Origin: a virus
Virus record (IMG/VR): IMGVR_UViG_3300042320_000415
Location: 1 to 23,332 of that record
Length of the DNA stretch: 23,332 nt
Strand: one strand, 5' to 3'
Positions 5,120-10,391 of this stretch are shown here, in pieces. Below the pieces are notes generated by a model. That model saw only the letters and a program-made list of their open reading frames with translations, searched no databases and was not told the origin of the DNA. The position numbers were made by a program, and so were the translations under genes. Numbering within the stretch: the first letter of the stretch is position 1; each line of letters begins with the position of its first letter.

Positions 5120-5335
5120 TCATCGTCCCTCCAACCATTTCTTGAGGTCGTCCAACTCGTTCACTTTGGCTTCGAGTTCTTTGATACGCTTGTTCGCTCC
5201 AGCCAGTTGCCGCTCCAACTGACGGGCGAATCCAGCCTTCACGAAGTGCTGGAACGCCACGGTGACAACCGGCTGTCGGTCTGTGCGCGGGGTTTTACTG
5301 ACGACCATTTTGTTGGCGTTAACAAGATGGCTCAC
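5120..5335 (-). CDS. small coiled-coil phage protein, PRTD/FARQLER family
   Basis: A 71-residue protein starting at the GTG of a GTGA junction, with AAGGAGG 7 nt upstream; an alternative ATG lies nine codons further in. It contains SKTPRTD near the N-terminus and FARQLERQLAGANKRIKELEAKVNEL, a coiled coil of about five heptads. The same layout recurs in the genes at 6482 and 7537, so these are divergent paralogs. Such small proteins are frequent in environmental phages and have no known function; oligomerisation through the coiled coil is likely. Confidence 0.8.
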   Translation of the reverse strand: MSHLVNANKMVVSKTPRTDRQPVVTVAFQHFVKAGFARQLERQLAGANKRIKELEAKVNELDDLKKWLEGR

Positions 5336-5565
5336 AGCTTGGCCTCCTTGGCTTTGTTTCTATTTTGATTGATGAAGCTAATTGGATTTGCTGAAAGCGT
5401 CTGCTTACCGCAATGGATGCATTTCCATTTTCTTTTAACATTGAATGCAACGTCCCAGTGAGAATGTGAGCCATGGAAACTGTCGTTTAGCGGTTGCCAA
5501 TAATGAGAACACGCAATTCCAAGAAACCGTTTGAGTATCTTTCCAATACAATTCATTGCGCTCAC
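5332..5565 (-). CDS. small zinc-ribbon-like protein
   Basis: A 77-residue protein starting at the GTG of a GTGA junction, with a strong SD (AAGGAGG) inside the preceding gene's last codons. An internal ATG three codons later is also possible. It has a C-x-H motif (ACSHYW) and a CIHCGK motif about 40 residues apart, suggesting one zinc bound by Cys-His-Cys-Cys. It ends with the shared AKEAKL tail, whose codons carry the next gene's SD. Its base composition is noticeably more AT-rich than the flanking genes, which fits separate acquisition. The CIHCGK segment is shared with the sigma/alpha-CTD-like protein at 3430. Function unknown. Confidence 0.78.
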   Translation of the reverse strand: MSAMNCIGKILKRFLGIACSHYWQPLNDSFHGSHSHWDVAFNVKRKWKCIHCGKQTLSANPISFINQNRNKAKEAKL

Positions 5566-5747
5566 AGCTTGGCCTCCTTGGCTTTCTCCCACATTTCGGA
5601 ACGTGGTTCGTCAGTGTAAAAATGCTGCACCATCAAATCCCCCGCCTCCTCCAGCCGCTTGACGTGCTGCTTAAGAGCCTCGTTCTCCTTCGCCATGTCT
5701 CCGATGGATTTGCACAAGCGTTCGTGCGCTTCGTATTCGGGGTTCAT
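5562..5747 (-). CDS. small coiled-coil protein with RLEEAGD motif
   Basis: A 61-residue protein starting at the ATG of an ATGA junction (5744-5747), with AAGGAG 8 nt upstream. The core MAKENEALKQHVKRLEEAGD forms a heptad coiled coil, followed by a short C-terminal segment and the AKEAKL tail. The RLEEAGD block is nearly identical in DNA to three other genes of the array. No enzymatic motif is visible. It is one cassette of the tiny-gene array. Confidence 0.78.
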   Translation of the reverse strand: MNPEYEAHERLCKSIGDMAKENEALKQHVKRLEEAGDLMVQHFYTDEPRSEMWEKAKEAKL

Positions 5748-6112
5748 CTCTTGTTCTCCTTTGCTCGCTGCCATGCGTTGGCCAGCAACCGATAGTTTGA
5801 GTCGGAAATAGCACCGTCCTTCAGCCACTCAAGCAGTTCGTCACCAGTACTCTTCATCAGCTTGATCCGATCTTGCAGGTACTCGACCAGCTCCTTCAGC
5901 TCGTTCACATCGGATTGAAGCTCGCGGATCTTTGTGGCCTGTGCGTCGGCAAACCATTGCTCCTTCATAATCCGAAGCACTTCTTTGGCTGCATCAGTAG
6001 CGGGTATGGATTCATTGACCGTGAACCCACCATCCAGATCGACCCGCATGATCTGCGTCGTTGGGTTGGATATCGGGTGGCTGTTGGTTGAAAAGTAGAT
6101 TGGTTCGCTCAT
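5744..6112 (-). CDS. coiled-coil protein with N-terminal beta motif
   Basis: A 122-residue protein beginning at the ATG of an ATGA junction, with AAGGAG 5 nt upstream. The N-terminal part (QIMRVDLDGGFTVNES, then DAAKEVLRIMKEQW) resembles the gene at 7250 (LLRIRSDGSFEIQG), so the two share a domain. It continues as a coiled coil (KIRELQSDVNELKELVEYLQDRIKL) and ends with WQRAKENKR in place of the AKEAKP tail. Proteins of this layout are common hypotheticals in phage genomes. It is cytoplasmic and its role is unknown. Confidence 0.78.
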   Translation of the reverse strand: MSEPIYFSTNSHPISNPTTQIMRVDLDGGFTVNESIPATDAAKEVLRIMKEQWFADAQATKIRELQSDVNELKELVEYLQDRIKLMKSTGDELLEWLKDGAISDSNYRLLANAWQRAKENKR

Positions 6113-6306
6113 TTGCACTCCTTCCATTTGAATTGAGGTTTCCCGTTCTTGTCGGCCACCCATTCGGCATGACCTGCTAGAACTGCCTGTTGCTGCATTT
6201 GATCAGTCCCGTTATCGAACCCTTTAATCAAACACATCGTAACCAAAACCACGAACAACAGCGTGCATGGAATTACTAGCGAGTATTGCCAGTGTTTGTC
6301 GTTCAC
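6109..6306 (-). CDS. small single-pass membrane protein
   Basis: A 65-residue protein starting at the GTG of a GTGA junction with AAGGAGG in the preceding codons. Residues about 9-28 (SLVIPCTLLFVVLVTMCLI) form one membrane helix preceded by a short charged N-terminus. The remainder (AVLAGHAEWVADKNGKPQFKWKE) matches a tail seen in many small phage membrane proteins (A-G-x-A-x-W...F-x-W). Topology, by charge, would put the C-terminal part either side. A role in the host inner membrane is likely, but what it does is unknown. Confidence 0.8.
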   Translation of the reverse strand: MNDKHWQYSLVIPCTLLFVVLVTMCLIKGFDNGTDQMQQQAVLAGHAEWVADKNGKPQFKWKECK

Positions 6307-6485
6307 GGCTTGGCCTCCTTCTCTTCCCACAGCAGCAGATCGGCGCGGAGAGCGTCGTTCTCGGATTCGAGTTGCTTGATCCGATCCTCCAGTTTTCGCA
6401 CCTGAAAGGCGATTGCGCGGAGTTCGCGTGGATGGTTGCAATCGGGAGACTCCGCTAGGAAAAGGATTCGTTCCTCAACACTCAC
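6303..6485 (-). CDS. small coiled-coil protein
   Basis: A 60-residue protein starting at the GTG of a GTGA junction, downstream of AAGGAGG. It is almost entirely helical: RELRAIAFQVRKLEDRIKQLESENDALRADLLLWEEKEAKP contains about five heptads. It ends with the EKEAKP tail. It has the DRIKxLE motif found in most array members, suggesting common ancestry or shuffling. No other motif is present. Function unknown. Confidence 0.75.
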   Translation of the reverse strand: MSVEERILFLAESPDCNHPRELRAIAFQVRKLEDRIKQLESENDALRADLLLWEEKEAKP

Positions 6486-6796
6486 GGCTTGGCCTCCTTC
6501 CATTTGGACCTTTTGGCTTTGCGAAAAGAAACGTAGAACTGAACCCATTCAGGCGTATCTTTCAGCCTGAATCCATTCACGTTCCATCGCTCGCTGCGAG
6601 CGCCTTCGACGATTTCCATCAGCGCATCCCCCGCCTCCTCCAGCCGCTTGGTGCGCTCATTGGCCGCGTTCAGTTCGCGTTCAAGTTGGCGGCACAGAGT
6701 GCCATCCATCCATGAGCGGTCTTGGCTGTTCCCAATGGCCGCATCCGTTCTTGGTGTATCGCTGACCATTTTGTTGGTGTCGCCAATATGGTTCAC
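6482..6796 (-). CDS. coiled-coil phage protein, SDTPRTDA/RQLEREL family
   Basis: A 104-residue protein starting at a GTG in a GTGA junction with AAGGAGG 7 nt upstream; an ATG nine codons in (6769) would give a start directly at MVSDTPRTDA. The SDTPRTDA N-terminus and CRQLERELNAANERTKRLEEAGD coiled coil identify it as a paralog of the genes at 5120 and 7537. The C-terminal part (NGFRLKDTPEWVQFYVSFRKAKRSK) is unique to this copy. It ends with WKEAKP. Function unknown. Confidence 0.78.
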   Translation of the reverse strand: MNHIGDTNKMVSDTPRTDAAIGNSQDRSWMDGTLCRQLERELNAANERTKRLEEAGDALMEIVEGARSERWNVNGFRLKDTPEWVQFYVSFRKAKRSKWKEAKP

Positions 6797-7059
6797 GGCA
6801 TGGCCTCCTTGGCTTTGTCGATTGTTTCGCGCGCACTTTGCGATGCGTACAGCCACTCACCTTCTTTCCACCAGTCGTTGTAGCAGTCACGCCAAGCAAG
6901 ACCCCTACTCAATAGCCAGTTCAATCGCTGCGAATCTTTTTCCAAAATATTCAATAGCCAGTTCAATCGCTGCGAATCTTTTTCCAAAAGCTTGATGCGA
7001 TCTTTGGCTGCTTTCAGATCCCATTGAGTGGCGATCAGTTCATGTTCAATATCAGTCAC
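6793..7059 (-). CDS. small coiled-coil protein with internal 14-residue tandem duplication
   Basis: An 88-residue protein starting at the GTG of a GTGA junction with AAGGAGG upstream. Its coiled coil contains LLEKDSQRLNWLL repeated twice in tandem, from a perfect 39-bp DNA repeat with a 42-bp period. Fourteen residues equals two heptads, so the coiled coil keeps its register. The second half (GLAWRDCYNDWWKEGEWL, then ARETIDKAKEAMP) matches a common small phage protein pattern (R-L-x-W-L...W-W-x...A-R-x-x-I-D-x-A). Function unknown. Confidence 0.78.
   Translation of the reverse strand: MTDIEHELIATQWDLKAAKDRIKLLEKDSQRLNWLLNILEKDSQRLNWLLSRGLAWRDCYNDWWKEGEWLYASQSARETIDKAKEAMP
6909..6989 (+). repeat. 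perfect 39-bp tandem direct repeat, 42-bp period
   Basis: The 39 bases at 6909-6947 recur exactly at 6951-6989, separated by TAT. The repeat lies within the coding sequence of the 88-residue coiled-coil protein and adds 14 residues in frame. Perfect identity suggests a recent slippage or unequal recombination event. Confidence 0.97.
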
Positions 7060-7253
7060 GGCTTTGCCTCCTTAATAATTAAAAGAATTCCCATATAAAT
7101 TATCCAAACGGCTCCAATAGGTATCAGCCAAAACAGCCGAAAGACCATTCCAAAGTCATACTGCCCGCTGGAACGGTATGGCCTGAACATGATGCACAGC
7201 AGGATTACGGTGATGAGTGCTGGCACGATCCACGATTTGATTGTGATGCTCAC
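7056..7253 (-). CDS. small two-helix membrane protein
   Basis: A 65-residue protein starting at the GTG of a GTGA junction with AAGGAGG 7 nt upstream. Two membrane helices are visible: about residues 7-23 (SWIVPALITVILLCIMF) and 37-60 (MVFRLFWLIPIGAVWIIYMGILLI), joined by a short polar loop (RPYRSSGQYDF). It ends with KEAKP. The size and topology are those of small phage inner-membrane proteins, including some holins, but its position in the tiny-gene array rather than a lysis cluster makes that uncertain. AT-rich relative to the flanking structural and replication genes. Confidence 0.78.
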   Translation of the reverse strand: MSITIKSWIVPALITVILLCIMFRPYRSSGQYDFGMVFRLFWLIPIGAVWIIYMGILLIIKEAKP

Positions 7254-7540
7254 GGTTTGTCCTCCTTGGCTTTGTTCCATTTTGAAACAGTGTGCTGCAC
7301 TGCATCCAACCGCTCATCGCGCAGCCATGCCTCCATCTTATCTCCCGCCTCCTCCAGCCGACGGATGCGGTCCTGCTGCTTCAGGAATGCGTGAACCAAT
7401 TCACCCAGCACAAACAGAGTTGGTGCGCCTCCCTGGATTTCAAACGATCCGTCTGAGCGGATCCTCAGAAGCTCAGCGTTTGGTTTTGCGTCGTTCCATT
7501 TGATAAGTGTTGCGTTGCTCATGTTGTTTGTGTCGCTCAC
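7250..7540 (-). CDS. coiled-coil protein with N-terminal beta motif and RLEEAGD block
   Basis: A 96-residue protein starting at a GTG in a GTGA junction with AAGGAGG upstream; an ATG six codons later (MSNATL) is a good alternative start. The N-terminal segment (ELLRIRSDGSFEIQGGAPT) resembles the gene at 5744. A coiled coil follows (LKQQDRIRRLEEAGDKMEAWL) with the shared RLEEAGD block, and the tail is KAKEDKP. It appears to combine modules found separately in other cassettes. Function unknown. Confidence 0.78.
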   Translation of the reverse strand: MSDTNNMSNATLIKWNDAKPNAELLRIRSDGSFEIQGGAPTLFVLGELVHAFLKQQDRIRRLEEAGDKMEAWLRDERLDAVQHTVSKWNKAKEDKP

Positions 7541-7788
7541 AGCTTGGCCTCCTTGGCTTCTGTCCAAATTCTCACTCGGGCCGCATATTCAAAGGGGTAG
7601 ATTGCTTCATCCCCCGCCTCCTCCAACCGCTTGATGCGCTCTTTTAACCGCAGGTTTTCTTCATCCAACAATTGCTGCTGCCGGATGATTGAGTTGGCTT
7701 CGTTGAGTCCGCGTTCCAACCTCCTGCACAGCATGCCGAGTTCGGCTACGTTGTGAGGAGTCGAGTCGGAGATAGGGGTGTCGCTCAT
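7537..7788 (-). CDS. coiled-coil phage protein, SDTP/RRLER family
   Basis: An 83-residue protein starting at the ATG of an ATGA junction (7785-7788). The N-terminus MSDTPISDS and the heptads in CRRLERGLNEANSIIRQQQ and LKERIKRLEEAGDEA make it a paralog of the genes at 5120 and 6482. Its C-terminal segment differs and ends with EAKEAKL, whose codons carry the SD for the next gene. Function unknown. Confidence 0.8.
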   Translation of the reverse strand: MSDTPISDSTPHNVAELGMLCRRLERGLNEANSIIRQQQLLDEENLRLKERIKRLEEAGDEAIYPFEYAARVRIWTEAKEAKL

Positions 7789-8440: not shown

Positions 8441-8574
8441 CGGGCGGCCTTCTTTAGCCAGGCAGCTATTGCCTTGTCGGCCACGGCCTGCAGTTTGAGG
8501 CCGGCGGCGAGGCAGTATTCTCGAAGGGCCTTGTGTGTGGTAGGTGTCACGTTGATGGTTTTTGGTTTGGTCAT
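8437..8574 (-). CDS. 45-residue ribbon-helix-helix-like protein
   Basis: A tiny gene that exactly fills the gap between its neighbours through ATGA overlaps at both ends (8571-8574 and 8437-8440). The protein begins MTKPKTINVTPTTHKALREY and continues CLAAGLKLQAVADKAIAAWL. A short beta strand (TINVT) followed by two helices is the pattern of CopG/Arc/MetJ ribbon-helix-helix DNA-binding proteins, which dimerise through the strand. It could be a phage repressor or accessory DNA-binding factor. Support is the pattern, the tight junctions and the lack of any other use of the gap. Confidence 0.75.
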   Translation of the reverse strand: MTKPKTINVTPTTHKALREYCLAAGLKLQAVADKAIAAWLKKAAR

Positions 8575-9047
8575 TGAGTGAGCTGCTTGGAGATCTCTTG
8601 GCCGAGACTGGATGATGCCCTGCCCAGGAGGGCTACTCGGTGCGCCATCTTCTCGGTGACGGCCTCATGCCTCTTCCTTTCGCATTCCGACAGCAGGTTG
8701 AGGTTCGTCTTAGTGCCTAGGATCACCGAGGCCTTGAGGCTGTTCATTGCCAGCCGGTTCATGCGCTCCATTTCGTCGGCGTTGGTATTGGGAGGCGCGA
8801 TATGGAAGCCAGCCCCGCGGAGGCCCCGTTGGCTGAAGTTCATTCCTCGGTGCCGCAGCACCATCCGGATGTTCAAGATTTCCATGTTAAATTCCACGGA
8901 TCCGAACTTCTCCTCTAGTGCTGCCTCCATCTCCTCGGTTGTCACGGTCAGGCCATAGGCCAGCCGGTGCTCGTTGCGTTCGATCCAGTCCTTCCAGAGC
9001 GGAAGGCGCCGGACCTCTTCTTCGTCGATCATGTCTTGTGTTTCCAT
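8571..9047 (-). CDS. hypothetical protein, mostly helical
   Basis: A 158-residue cytoplasmic protein with a charged N-terminus (METQDMIDEEEVRRLPLWKD), a helical middle (TTEEMEAALEEKFGSVEFNM), a short possible winged-helix segment (MVLRHRGMNFSQRGLRGAGF) and a long C-terminal helical stretch with many Arg/Lys/Glu. I do not recognise the family. The leader on the transcribed strand consists of the conserved hairpin with loop GCGGTA, then GCAACTTTCACAAC, then ATG, without an SD. It heads the operon with the ribbon-helix-helix and RuvC-like genes, so a DNA-related role is plausible. Confidence 0.75.
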   Translation of the reverse strand: METQDMIDEEEVRRLPLWKDWIERNEHRLAYGLTVTTEEMEAALEEKFGSVEFNMEILNIRMVLRHRGMNFSQRGLRGAGFHIAPPNTNADEMERMNRLAMNSLKASVILGTKTNLNLLSECERKRHEAVTEKMAHRVALLGRASSSLGQEISKQLTQ

Positions 9048-9060
9048 GTTGTGAAAGTTG

Positions 9061-9333
9061 CCCGGTGTTACCGCACACCGGAAAGCGTTGTTGCCATGCC
9101 CTGCCCGGCCCCGCCCTGCACTGCCGAGCCGAGCCCCGAAAAATTGTCTGAGTTACCGTACCCAGTGACGTGTTGCCTTGCTCGGCCATACCCGGCCCGG
9201 CCTGGCCTTTGCATGCCGGGCCCGACCCCGAAAAATTGTCCCGGATACCGCGCCGGGTCGCGTGTTGCCTTGCCAGGCCGCGCCTCGCCAGGCCGCGCCC
9301 TGCCTGGCCTAGCCAGTGCCTGCCTTGAAAAAA
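9061..9333 (-). repeat. three tandem intergenic units: (NNGGC)n array plus conserved hairpin
   Basis: About 270 bp of non-coding DNA made of three related units about 92 bp apart. On the transcribed strand each unit has an (NNGGC)n pentamer array of roughly 9-12 steps, then AAGGCAACACGC or similar, then a hairpin with a six-base loop RCGGTA, and in two cases ACAATTTTTCGGGG before the next array. Hairpins (plus-strand coordinates) are 9062-9081, 9148-9165 and 9240-9257. Stem sequences differ but still pair. CCCCGAAAAATTGTC is repeated exactly at 9134-9148 and 9226-9240. No gene is supported here. Confidence 0.85.
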
Positions 9334-9918
9334 TCAAACCACCTCGACGGTGAACCTGCCGAACTTTGGTCGCCAGTCGCCCAGGCCAATGATGGCGCCG
9401 GCCTCCCGTGTGGAGTCGATCACCTGCGCCTGGTTGACGATGCTTTCATCGAACTCGATGGTGCAAGCCAGCCACCAGCCGGTGGGCACCAGAGGCCGGA
9501 TCCGAATGATCCGGGCGAGCTGCACCTTGACGCCTTTTCGGATGGTGTAGGCCGGGTCCTCATAAATCTCCTCCTTTGACTTGCCGGCCTTGCGATGGTG
9601 CACAACCACCTCAGGCTCCGAGACAAACACCGCGGCTGCAAAGTCCTTGCCCAGGCGGCTCTTCTTGGCGCCCTCCTGGATGCAGCGCTCGATGTTGTCG
9701 GAAGGCATGACCATGCCGCCCTCGGCTTCGGACCAGTAAAGGCCGGCCTCCCATTCCAGGCGGTCGCGCTCTTGGTGATCGTGTATGGTCATCTTCTTGG
9801 ATCCCTTGGAGGTGATCTTTTTGATGGCCACGGTGTATGGGTTAGTCGGATCCGCCATCAGGCCATTGTGCATGATGAGGGGCCGCAGCCCGGTGAGTTT
9901 GACTTTGATTTGCTTCAT
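9334..9918 (-). CDS. conserved phage protein of unknown function (MHNG / GLGDWRP motifs)
   Basis: A 194-residue protein beginning MKQIKVKLTGLRPLIMHNG and ending IGLGDWRPKFGRFTVEVV. Other features are GAKKSRLGKDFAAAVFV in the middle and VQLARIIRIRPLVPTGWWL near the C-terminus. I recall this type as a common hypothetical protein of environmental phages and know of no assigned function. The strand-rich layout and glycine-rich GLGDWRP end are reminiscent of RAMP-like RNA-binding folds, but that is speculative. The start has no SD and a CA-rich leader. It is flanked on both sides by the pentamer/hairpin intergenic units, suggesting separate regulation. Confidence 0.82.
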   Translation of the reverse strand: MKQIKVKLTGLRPLIMHNGLMADPTNPYTVAIKKITSKGSKKMTIHDHQERDRLEWEAGLYWSEAEGGMVMPSDNIERCIQEGAKKSRLGKDFAAAVFVSEPEVVVHHRKAGKSKEEIYEDPAYTIRKGVKVQLARIIRIRPLVPTGWWLACTIEFDESIVNQAQVIDSTREAGAIIGLGDWRPKFGRFTVEVV

Positions 9919-9960
9919 GTTGTTTTGCTTTGGTTGCCTTGTTGTTGTTTACCGAAAGTT

Positions 9961-10056
9961 TCCGGTGATACCGCCCACCGGCAGGCGTTTATTGGCTTGC
10001 CGAGCCAGACAACGACTCGCCTGGCCACACCCAGCCCGGCATCGCCAGGCCTCGTA
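9961..10056 (-). repeat. fourth (NNGGC)n array plus conserved hairpin unit
   Basis: Between the lysozyme-like gene's stop and the leader of the next gene. On the transcribed strand an array of about 11 pentamers (GAGGC, CTGGC, GATGC, CGGGC and so on, perfectly in 5-bp phase) is followed by a hairpin CCGGTGG-GCGGTA-TCACCGG (plus strand 9962-9981) and AAACTTTCGG. It matches the units at 9061-9333 in layout and loop, with different stem and array bases. Confidence 0.8.
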
Positions 10057-10058
10057 AA

Positions 10059-10391
10059 TCATTTGATCACCTTCTGTATCCGTCGCCAGTAAGCCAGCGT
10101 GGCAGTCTTACGGTCCCCAGTCGGGCCACCATTCCAAATGCGGGCCTGCTCCTCGGTAGTCTTGCCGCGGCCGTAGTGCTTCAGGTAGGCCTCGCACACA
10201 GCCCTGGCCGCCACCCGGTTGGTCATGTCCTGATGGCGGTAGTGCGATCCGGTGATCCGGTTCACATCCTGCACGACGCCGCGGTGGATCTGCAGAGGGC
10301 CTAGGGCGCGTCCGTTGTCGCCGATGGCTAGATCGTTGCCCGAGGACTCTACGATGATCAGAGCGCTGATGAGATTGGAGATGGTGGTCAT
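10059..10391 (-). CDS. lysozyme-like lytic transglycosylase (possible endolysin)
   Basis: A 110-residue protein of the SLT/lysozyme-like superfamily that would cut the glycan strands of peptidoglycan. The probable catalytic glutamate is Glu15 in IIVESSGND. It is followed by AIGDNGRALGPLQI (23-35) and RIWNGGP (84-90), the usual Gly-Pro-Leu-Gln-Ile and Asn-Gly-Gly elements of the fold. It is short and has no signal peptide or cell-wall-binding domain, so export would need a holin or another route. It is separated from the holin-like genes by about 11 kb. The leader (10392-10504) contains type B hairpins. The fold call is good; endolysin versus virion-associated entry enzyme is undecided. Confidence 0.85.
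   Translation of the reverse strand: MTTISNLISALIIVESSGNDLAIGDNGRALGPLQIHRGVVQDVNRITGSHYRHQDMTNRVAARAVCEAYLKHYGRGKTTEEQARIWNGGPTGDRKTATLAYWRRIQKVIK

What the first reader, a model, noticed from the sequence alone, without database searches (positions are those of the whole stretch)
9061..10056. Repeated intergenic element: (NNGGC)n pentamer array ending in a hairpin with conserved RCGGTA loop and compensating stem changes
Four copies (three at 9061-9333, one at 9961-10056) share the same architecture on the transcribed strand. The stems are CCGGTGT/ACACCGG, CTGGGT/ACTCAG (one G-U), CCCGG/CCGGG and CCGGTG/CACCGG (plus a possible G-U), all around the loop GCGGTA or ACGGTA. Different stems that still pair indicate selection on the hairpin as RNA or DNA structure. 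The arrays keep exact 5-bp phase although individual bases vary, and the unit period (about 92 bp) is not a multiple of three. The element lies between gene stops and the next starts, and is followed by CAACTTTC or ACAATTTTTC. It could be an RNA-processing or antitermination signal, a protein-binding site or a mobile repeat. I know of no named element with this layout.
Basis: seen in the sequence. Interest (0 to 1): 0.85.

Follow-up and report, generated by a model that had tools for sequence, protein, structure and literature searches.

The report
VIPR guide-RNA array in a phage
The odd repeats are the guide-RNA genes of a VIPR system, a recently reported CRISPR-like weapon that phages use against rival phages, here in a phage group where it had not been shown; the kind of system is known, but this member adds independent support for its gapped code.

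Summary
Four (NNGGC)n arrays, each capped by a hairpin with an RCGGTA loop, lie on the transcribed strand (9062-9316 and 9962-10053). Shuffles do not produce them, and the hairpin stems covary strongly in relatives.

The explanation lies in the gene between the arrays (9337-9918, minus strand). It is a homologue of Vipr, a RAMP/Cas7-like protein (PDB 36pp, profile E 4e-50; high-confidence model that matches Csm3). The gene after the arrays (8574-9047) is a winged-helix-like Vap. The arrays are therefore vrRNA genes of a VIPR system, described in a 2026 preprint (PMC13142463): GGY scaffold, NN guide letters, structured 3' tail.

Two tests made here without knowing any target support the published one-base-skip code. 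Guides fall in codon positions 1-2 (95% of 469 guides), and guides are shared or tiled between different tails (20 pairs against 1.5 in shuffles).

The targets of this phage's own four guides were not found. Tail pseudoknot support is modest. Verdict: new member of a known, very young kind.

The parts
9337..9918 (-). vipr gene (194 aa, phrog_4652): RAMP/Cas7-like protein expected to bind the vrRNAs
   Evidence: profile vs PDB 36pp 'SUSP1 Vipr protein' E 4e-50; AF2 model pLDDT 95, Foldseek best hits Csm3/Cas7-type RAMPs; phrog_4652
8574..9047 (-). vap gene (158 aa, accessory protein, winged-helix-like, related to the protein next to Vipr in wV8, LESphi2 and LittleE)
   Evidence: alignment A2; profile A2 vs wV8 gp94 2e-19, LESphi2 P21_8 2.5e-24, LittleE gp33 4e-24 (E-values for a 3-sequence set); weak OmpR/CpxR winged-helix hits, E 0.17 and above
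9999..10053 (-). vrRNA 1 guide array, 11 units detected, several imperfect GGY units; NN = GA CT GA CG TG GT CA GA GT CT TC
9962..9988 (-). vrRNA 1 tail: ACGC (9988-9985), stem 9981-9975/9968-9962, loop GCGGTA 9974-9969
9267..9316 (-). vrRNA 2 guide array, 10 clean units (2 more possible 5'); NN = CT TA CA AG GC CT GA GC CT AA
9230..9263 (-). vrRNA 2 tail: ACGC (9263-9260), stem 9257-9253/9244-9240, loop GCGGTA 9251-9246, then ACAATTTTTC
9175..9229 (-). vrRNA 3 guide array, 11 units; NN = GG CG CC AT AA CA CG CG AT CG AA; shared with relatives of about 96% Vipr identity
9138..9171 (-). vrRNA 3 tail: ACGT (9171-9168), stem 9165-9160/9153-9148, loop ACGGTA 9159-9154, then ACAATTTTTC
9093..9137 (-). 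vrRNA 4 guide array, 9 units; NN = GG TC TC AG AG GG CG AG AT
9062..9088 (-). vrRNA 4 tail: ACGC (9088-9085), stem 9081-9075/9068-9062, loop GCGGTA 9074-9069, directly before the vap start

Best explanation
The window carries a VIPR locus (vrRNA1 - vipr - vrRNA2-3-4 - vap), transcribed on the minus strand. Each (GGCNN)n array plus its hairpin tail is one guide RNA (vrRNA). Copies of the Vipr RAMP protein line up along the GGY triplets and present the NN pairs. The NN pairs base-pair with double-stranded DNA that reads NNxNNxNN (one skipped base, usually a codon wobble position). Binding silences genes of competing phages, satellites or prophages in the same host. The structured tail (hairpin, probably with a 3-bp pseudoknot between CGY and the RCG of the loop) caps the RNA, as a crRNA handle does. 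The Vap probably assists on DNA. Shown here: the arrays, the Vipr and Vap homology, the RAMP fold, the tail covariation, the unbiased co-occurrence of arrays with Vipr, codon-register coherence of guides and guide sharing between tails. Inferred from the preprint: expression, complex formation, DNA silencing. Not shown: what these four guides target.
For: Vipr profile matches the solved SUSP1 Vipr chain with E 4e-50. The model of the window protein (pLDDT 95) matches Csm3/Cas7-type RAMPs. The Vap neighbour is related to the protein beside Vipr in Felixounavirus wV8, in LESphi2 and in LittleE. Unit counts of 9-11 fit the published 9-16. Tails covary and show a possible pseudoknot, as in the published clade. 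Target-free code test: a mixture fit puts 95% of 469 guides in the codon 1-2 register (66% sense, 29% antisense), log-likelihood -15777 against -15825 +/- 6 when NNs are shuffled among guides; in the window clade 99% of 81 guides. 20 guide pairs share 4 or more consecutive NNs against 1.5 expected (maximum 6), some under different tails and in shifted register, as if tiling one target gene.
Against: No target found. Exact 9-NN, one-skip patterns of all four window guides give no match in IMG/VR. Conserved-core patterns of two guide families give only hits that look like chance. A scan of held relatives shows no advantage of skip 1 over other skips. No RNA data. V1 and V3 have imperfect GGY units and may be decaying. 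The code test depends on pooled codon statistics of phage genes as reference.
Confidence: 0.93

Rival explanations
1. Cis-regulatory RNA: a ring or filament protein (as TRAP binds (G/U)AGNN x 11) binds GGCNN repeats in the mRNA leader and controls its own operon; the NN letters are meaningless spacers.
For: 5-nt period, about 10 units and arrays next to the gene of the binding protein would fit autoregulation.
Against: The neighbour is a RAMP protein related to a reported RNA-guided protein, not a TRAP. NNs are not neutral spacers: identical or overlapping NN strings recur under different tails and NNs carry coherent codon-register signal per guide. Loci carry up to 19 arrays.
Confidence: 0.04
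2. Mobile or passively expanding repeat (MITE/REP-like), with hairpins as transposition ends and arrays as slippage products.
For: Multiple copies, hairpins, rapid length change among relatives.
Against: Always on the transcribed strand in loci with real arrays; tied to one gene family in phages of very different kinds; arrays turn over while tails keep pairing; tails of unrelated phages share no sequence.
Confidence: 0.02
3. Transcription terminator or antitermination signal: hairpin followed by ACAATTTTTC.
For: V2 and V3 have a U-run 4 nt after the stem.
Against: V1 and V4 lack it; the U-run is not next to the stem; most distant relatives have no U-run; does not explain the arrays.
Confidence: 0.01

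Closest known systems
VIPR systems of the SUSP1 type (type II; PMC13142463; relatives in Felixounavirus such as wV8)
   Same: Vipr homologue (about 33% identity to wV8 gp95), Vap-like wHTH neighbour, one vrRNA upstream and three downstream of vipr, NNGGY arrays, structured tail with likely pseudoknot
   Different: Separate, well supported Vipr clade (14 rows, 100/99); the three downstream vrRNAs lie between vipr and vap (in SUSP1 downstream of both genes); GGC rather than the GGT of wV8; different tail sequences; several distinct tail families per phage
Class 1 CRISPR RAMPs (Csm3, Cas7)
   Same: RRM fold with glycine-rich loop; Foldseek E 5e-6; period along a guide RNA
   Different: No CRISPR array and no cas genes seen beside the locus; guide is gapped pentamer repeats, not a contiguous spacer
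TRAP/trp leader (GAG/UAG NN repeats; from general knowledge)
   Same: 5-nt period, about 11 units
   Different: Different fold and protein; NN letters there are spacers

Membership tests
VIPR system | Vipr protein: single-RRM RAMP homologue related to SUSP1 Vipr | tested here: met
   PDB 36pp profile hit E 4e-50; model and Foldseek
VIPR system | vrRNAs with 9-16 YNNGG repeats, GGY conserved, NN hypervariable, beside vipr | tested here: met
   9-11 units in the window; over 535 arrays 86% of triplets are GGC and 7% GGT, all 16 NNs used
VIPR system | invariable 3' tail with conserved secondary structure | tested here: met
   covariation score 0.811 vs 0.175 shuffled, 0/500
VIPR system | pseudoknot in the tail (reported for the SUSP1 clade only) | tested here: inconclusive
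   CGY/RCG pairs in 11/11 variants, but only one pair varies (C-G/U-A)
VIPR system | vap gene with predicted DNA binding | tested here: met
   homology to the proteins beside Vipr in wV8, LESphi2, LittleE; the DNA-binding prediction rests on weak winged-helix similarity
VIPR system | target read with one skipped base, at codon wobble position | tested here: inconclusive
   guide composition supports the codon 1-2 register; no target of the window guides found
VIPR system | vrRNA expression and binding by Vipr; silencing of target DNA | not testable with these tools
   needs sRNA-seq and reporter assays
CRISPR-Cas | repeat-spacer array with contiguous spacers and cas genes | tested here: not met
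   spacers replaced by pentamer arrays; vipr and vap are the only genes tied to the arrays in the loci studied
TRAP-controlled leader | gene for a TRAP (TrpBP) homologue | tested here: not met
   no TrpBP among Pfam hits of the Vipr members or the other genes tested; not every ORF of the window was scanned

The most novel reading that the evidence does not exclude
In this phage group guides move between several standing tail slots, and overlapping guides under different tails tile one target gene (for example vrRNA3 of the window, vrRNA1 of L155 and vrRNA1 of L160 all contain GG CG CC AT AA). This would mean that VIPR has a way to write or swap guides, a step not described in the preprint's main text.
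Probability: 0.25. Interest if true: 0.75.

Novelty: new member of a known kind. Interest (0 to 1): 0.58.

Why it matters
VIPR is a months-old, single-preprint system proposed as an ancestor of CRISPR. This window finds it independently from raw sequence in another phage clade, gives covariation support for a tail structure, and supplies a target-free statistical test of the gapped code on 469 guides. The clade's guide turnover, with constant tails, gives a natural data set for the open question of where new guides come from.

Tried and rejected
TRAP-like attenuation was my first model (5-nt period, about 11 units); rejected once the neighbour proved to be a RAMP/Vipr protein and NNs proved informative. 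Rfam search of the window: no hits. Nucleotide search of phage records: no hits. Target searches under the one-skip rule: all four window guides in IMG/VR (zero hits); conserved core of the vrRNA4-slot guide family of relatives (2 hits with the same sequence, stop codons near by in the matching frame, so chance); conserved core of the vrRNA3 family (1 hit matching L155's guide at 11/11 NNs, but my reading of the surrounding ORF puts the skipped base on codon position 2, so probably chance); same core in GTDB genomes (13 scattered hits, no extension to neighbouring guide units). Local scans of 1.2 Mb of loci and 0.56 Mb of clade contigs with skips 0-3: no skip stands out. Self-targeting of the window: none, 13-16 of 18-22 letters, as with control skips.

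Full report
What is there. The window is a 23,332-base IMG/VR phage contig with its genes on the minus strand. Between the stop of a lysozyme-like ORF (10059-10391) and the start of the next gene at 9918 lies one array-plus-hairpin unit; between that gene's stop (9334) and the next start (9047) lie three more. I confirmed all four, with their loops and stems, base by base. The arrays score 13, 20, 13 and 15; in 200 dinucleotide shuffles of the window one array reached 9 or more (maximum 10), and 1000 shuffles of the region itself reached 9.

Relatives. The gene between the arrays has 27 distinct relatives in IMG/VR. All near relatives and the distant ones with 57-65% identity carry the same kind of arrays, on the transcribed strand, with different hairpins. 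Tails stay constant while arrays change in length and in NN letters.

Link to one gene. Array lengths peak at 8-13 units and arrays sit on one strand in all but one locus, a simple GGCCC repeat. In 85 of the 120 loci an HMM grown from the window protein finds a homologue, usually beside the arrays. At least two of the rest are simple GC repeats (L045, L054).

Identity. The protein profile hits one solved relative, PDB 36pp, 'SUSP1 Vipr protein', E 4e-50. The AlphaFold2 model (mean pLDDT 95.4) matches Csm3- and Cas7-type RAMPs. The preprint PMC13142463 describes VIPR: a RAMP homologue in phages, vrRNAs of 9-16 YNNGG repeats with a structured tail, recognition of double-stranded DNA through NN letters with one skipped base, silencing of competing phages, and DNA-binding Vap proteins in some types. 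The window meets the sequence features that define this. The neighbour at 8574-9047 is related to the protein beside Vipr in Felixounavirus wV8, in Pseudomonas LESphi2 and in Mycobacterium phage LittleE. Vipr phylogeny puts the window clade in its own group (14 rows, 100/99), in a wider, weakly supported group with those phages. I do not assign a VIPR type, because the preprint's type references were not at hand.

Tail. Over 12 tail variants the six-pair stem is paired in 98.6% of cells with four pairs showing compensatory change; covariation 0.811 against 0.175 +/- 0.059 shuffled and at most 0.19 for slid controls. That suggests a small pseudoknot like the one reported for SUSP1, with modest support.

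Code. I tested the published code without targets. If NN pairs lie on codon positions 1-2 of coding targets, each guide should look like codon 1-2 dinucleotides, sense or antisense. A mixture fit over six registers puts 65.6% sense and 29.4% antisense in the 1-2 register, 5% elsewhere, for 469 guides; the fit is about 8 s.d. better than with NNs shuffled among guides. For the window clade (81 guides) 99% fall in the 1-2 register, 2.7 s.d.. Compositional differences between phages could contribute to the shuffle contrast, but not obviously to the preference for one register. Guides are also shared: 20 pairs of near-clade guides share at least four consecutive NNs, 1.5 expected. Some sit under different tails and in shifted register, as expected if they tile one target; others are simply the same guide drifting in the same slot.

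Targets. None found for the window guides (see 'tried and rejected'). The host is unknown.

Conclusion. A VIPR locus; known kind, new member. Expression, RNA binding and silencing are inferred from the preprint's experiments on homologues.

Noticed in passing
L199 (Mycobacterium phage LittleE) 1733-1930 and 3180-3400; L135 4999-4700 (-); also L047, L121, L031: vrRNA tails in these GC-rich phages contain a tRNA-like minihelix (T-arm GGTTCGANTCC plus acceptor-like stem; e.g. TCCGGG/CCCGGA with GGCGG-TTCGAGT-CCGCC), which could be a processing or end-protecting device. A simple finder gave 6 of 535 arrays against 0.08% background.
   Followed up: partly
L200 (Pseudomonas phage LESphi2) 1594-1886, 2001-3073: The LESphi2 prophage of P. 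aeruginosa LESB58 carries three vrRNA-like arrays, a Vipr homologue and a Vap-like gene downstream of its CI repressor gene.
   Followed up: partly
L198 (Escherichia phage wV8) 2259-2316 and 3652-3709: The 'DR_4' repeats annotated in the wV8 record lie beside the vrRNA arrays that flank genes 95 and 94.
   Followed up: no
window 10450-10398 (-): AAGGCAACCAGGGGCGCGACTGGCCAACGCGCACAACTTTC upstream of the lysozyme-like ORF resembles a vrRNA tail (GGCAAC ... ACAACTTTC) without an array; possibly a decayed vrRNA.
   Followed up: no
window 5303-7566: Repeated gene junctions in a row of small ORFs (GCTTGGCCTCCTTGGCTTT and variants, the reverse complement of an AAGGAGG ribosome-binding region) and a repeated CCGCCTCCTCCAGCCGCTTG motif inside them: looks like duplicated small genes.
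   Followed up: no
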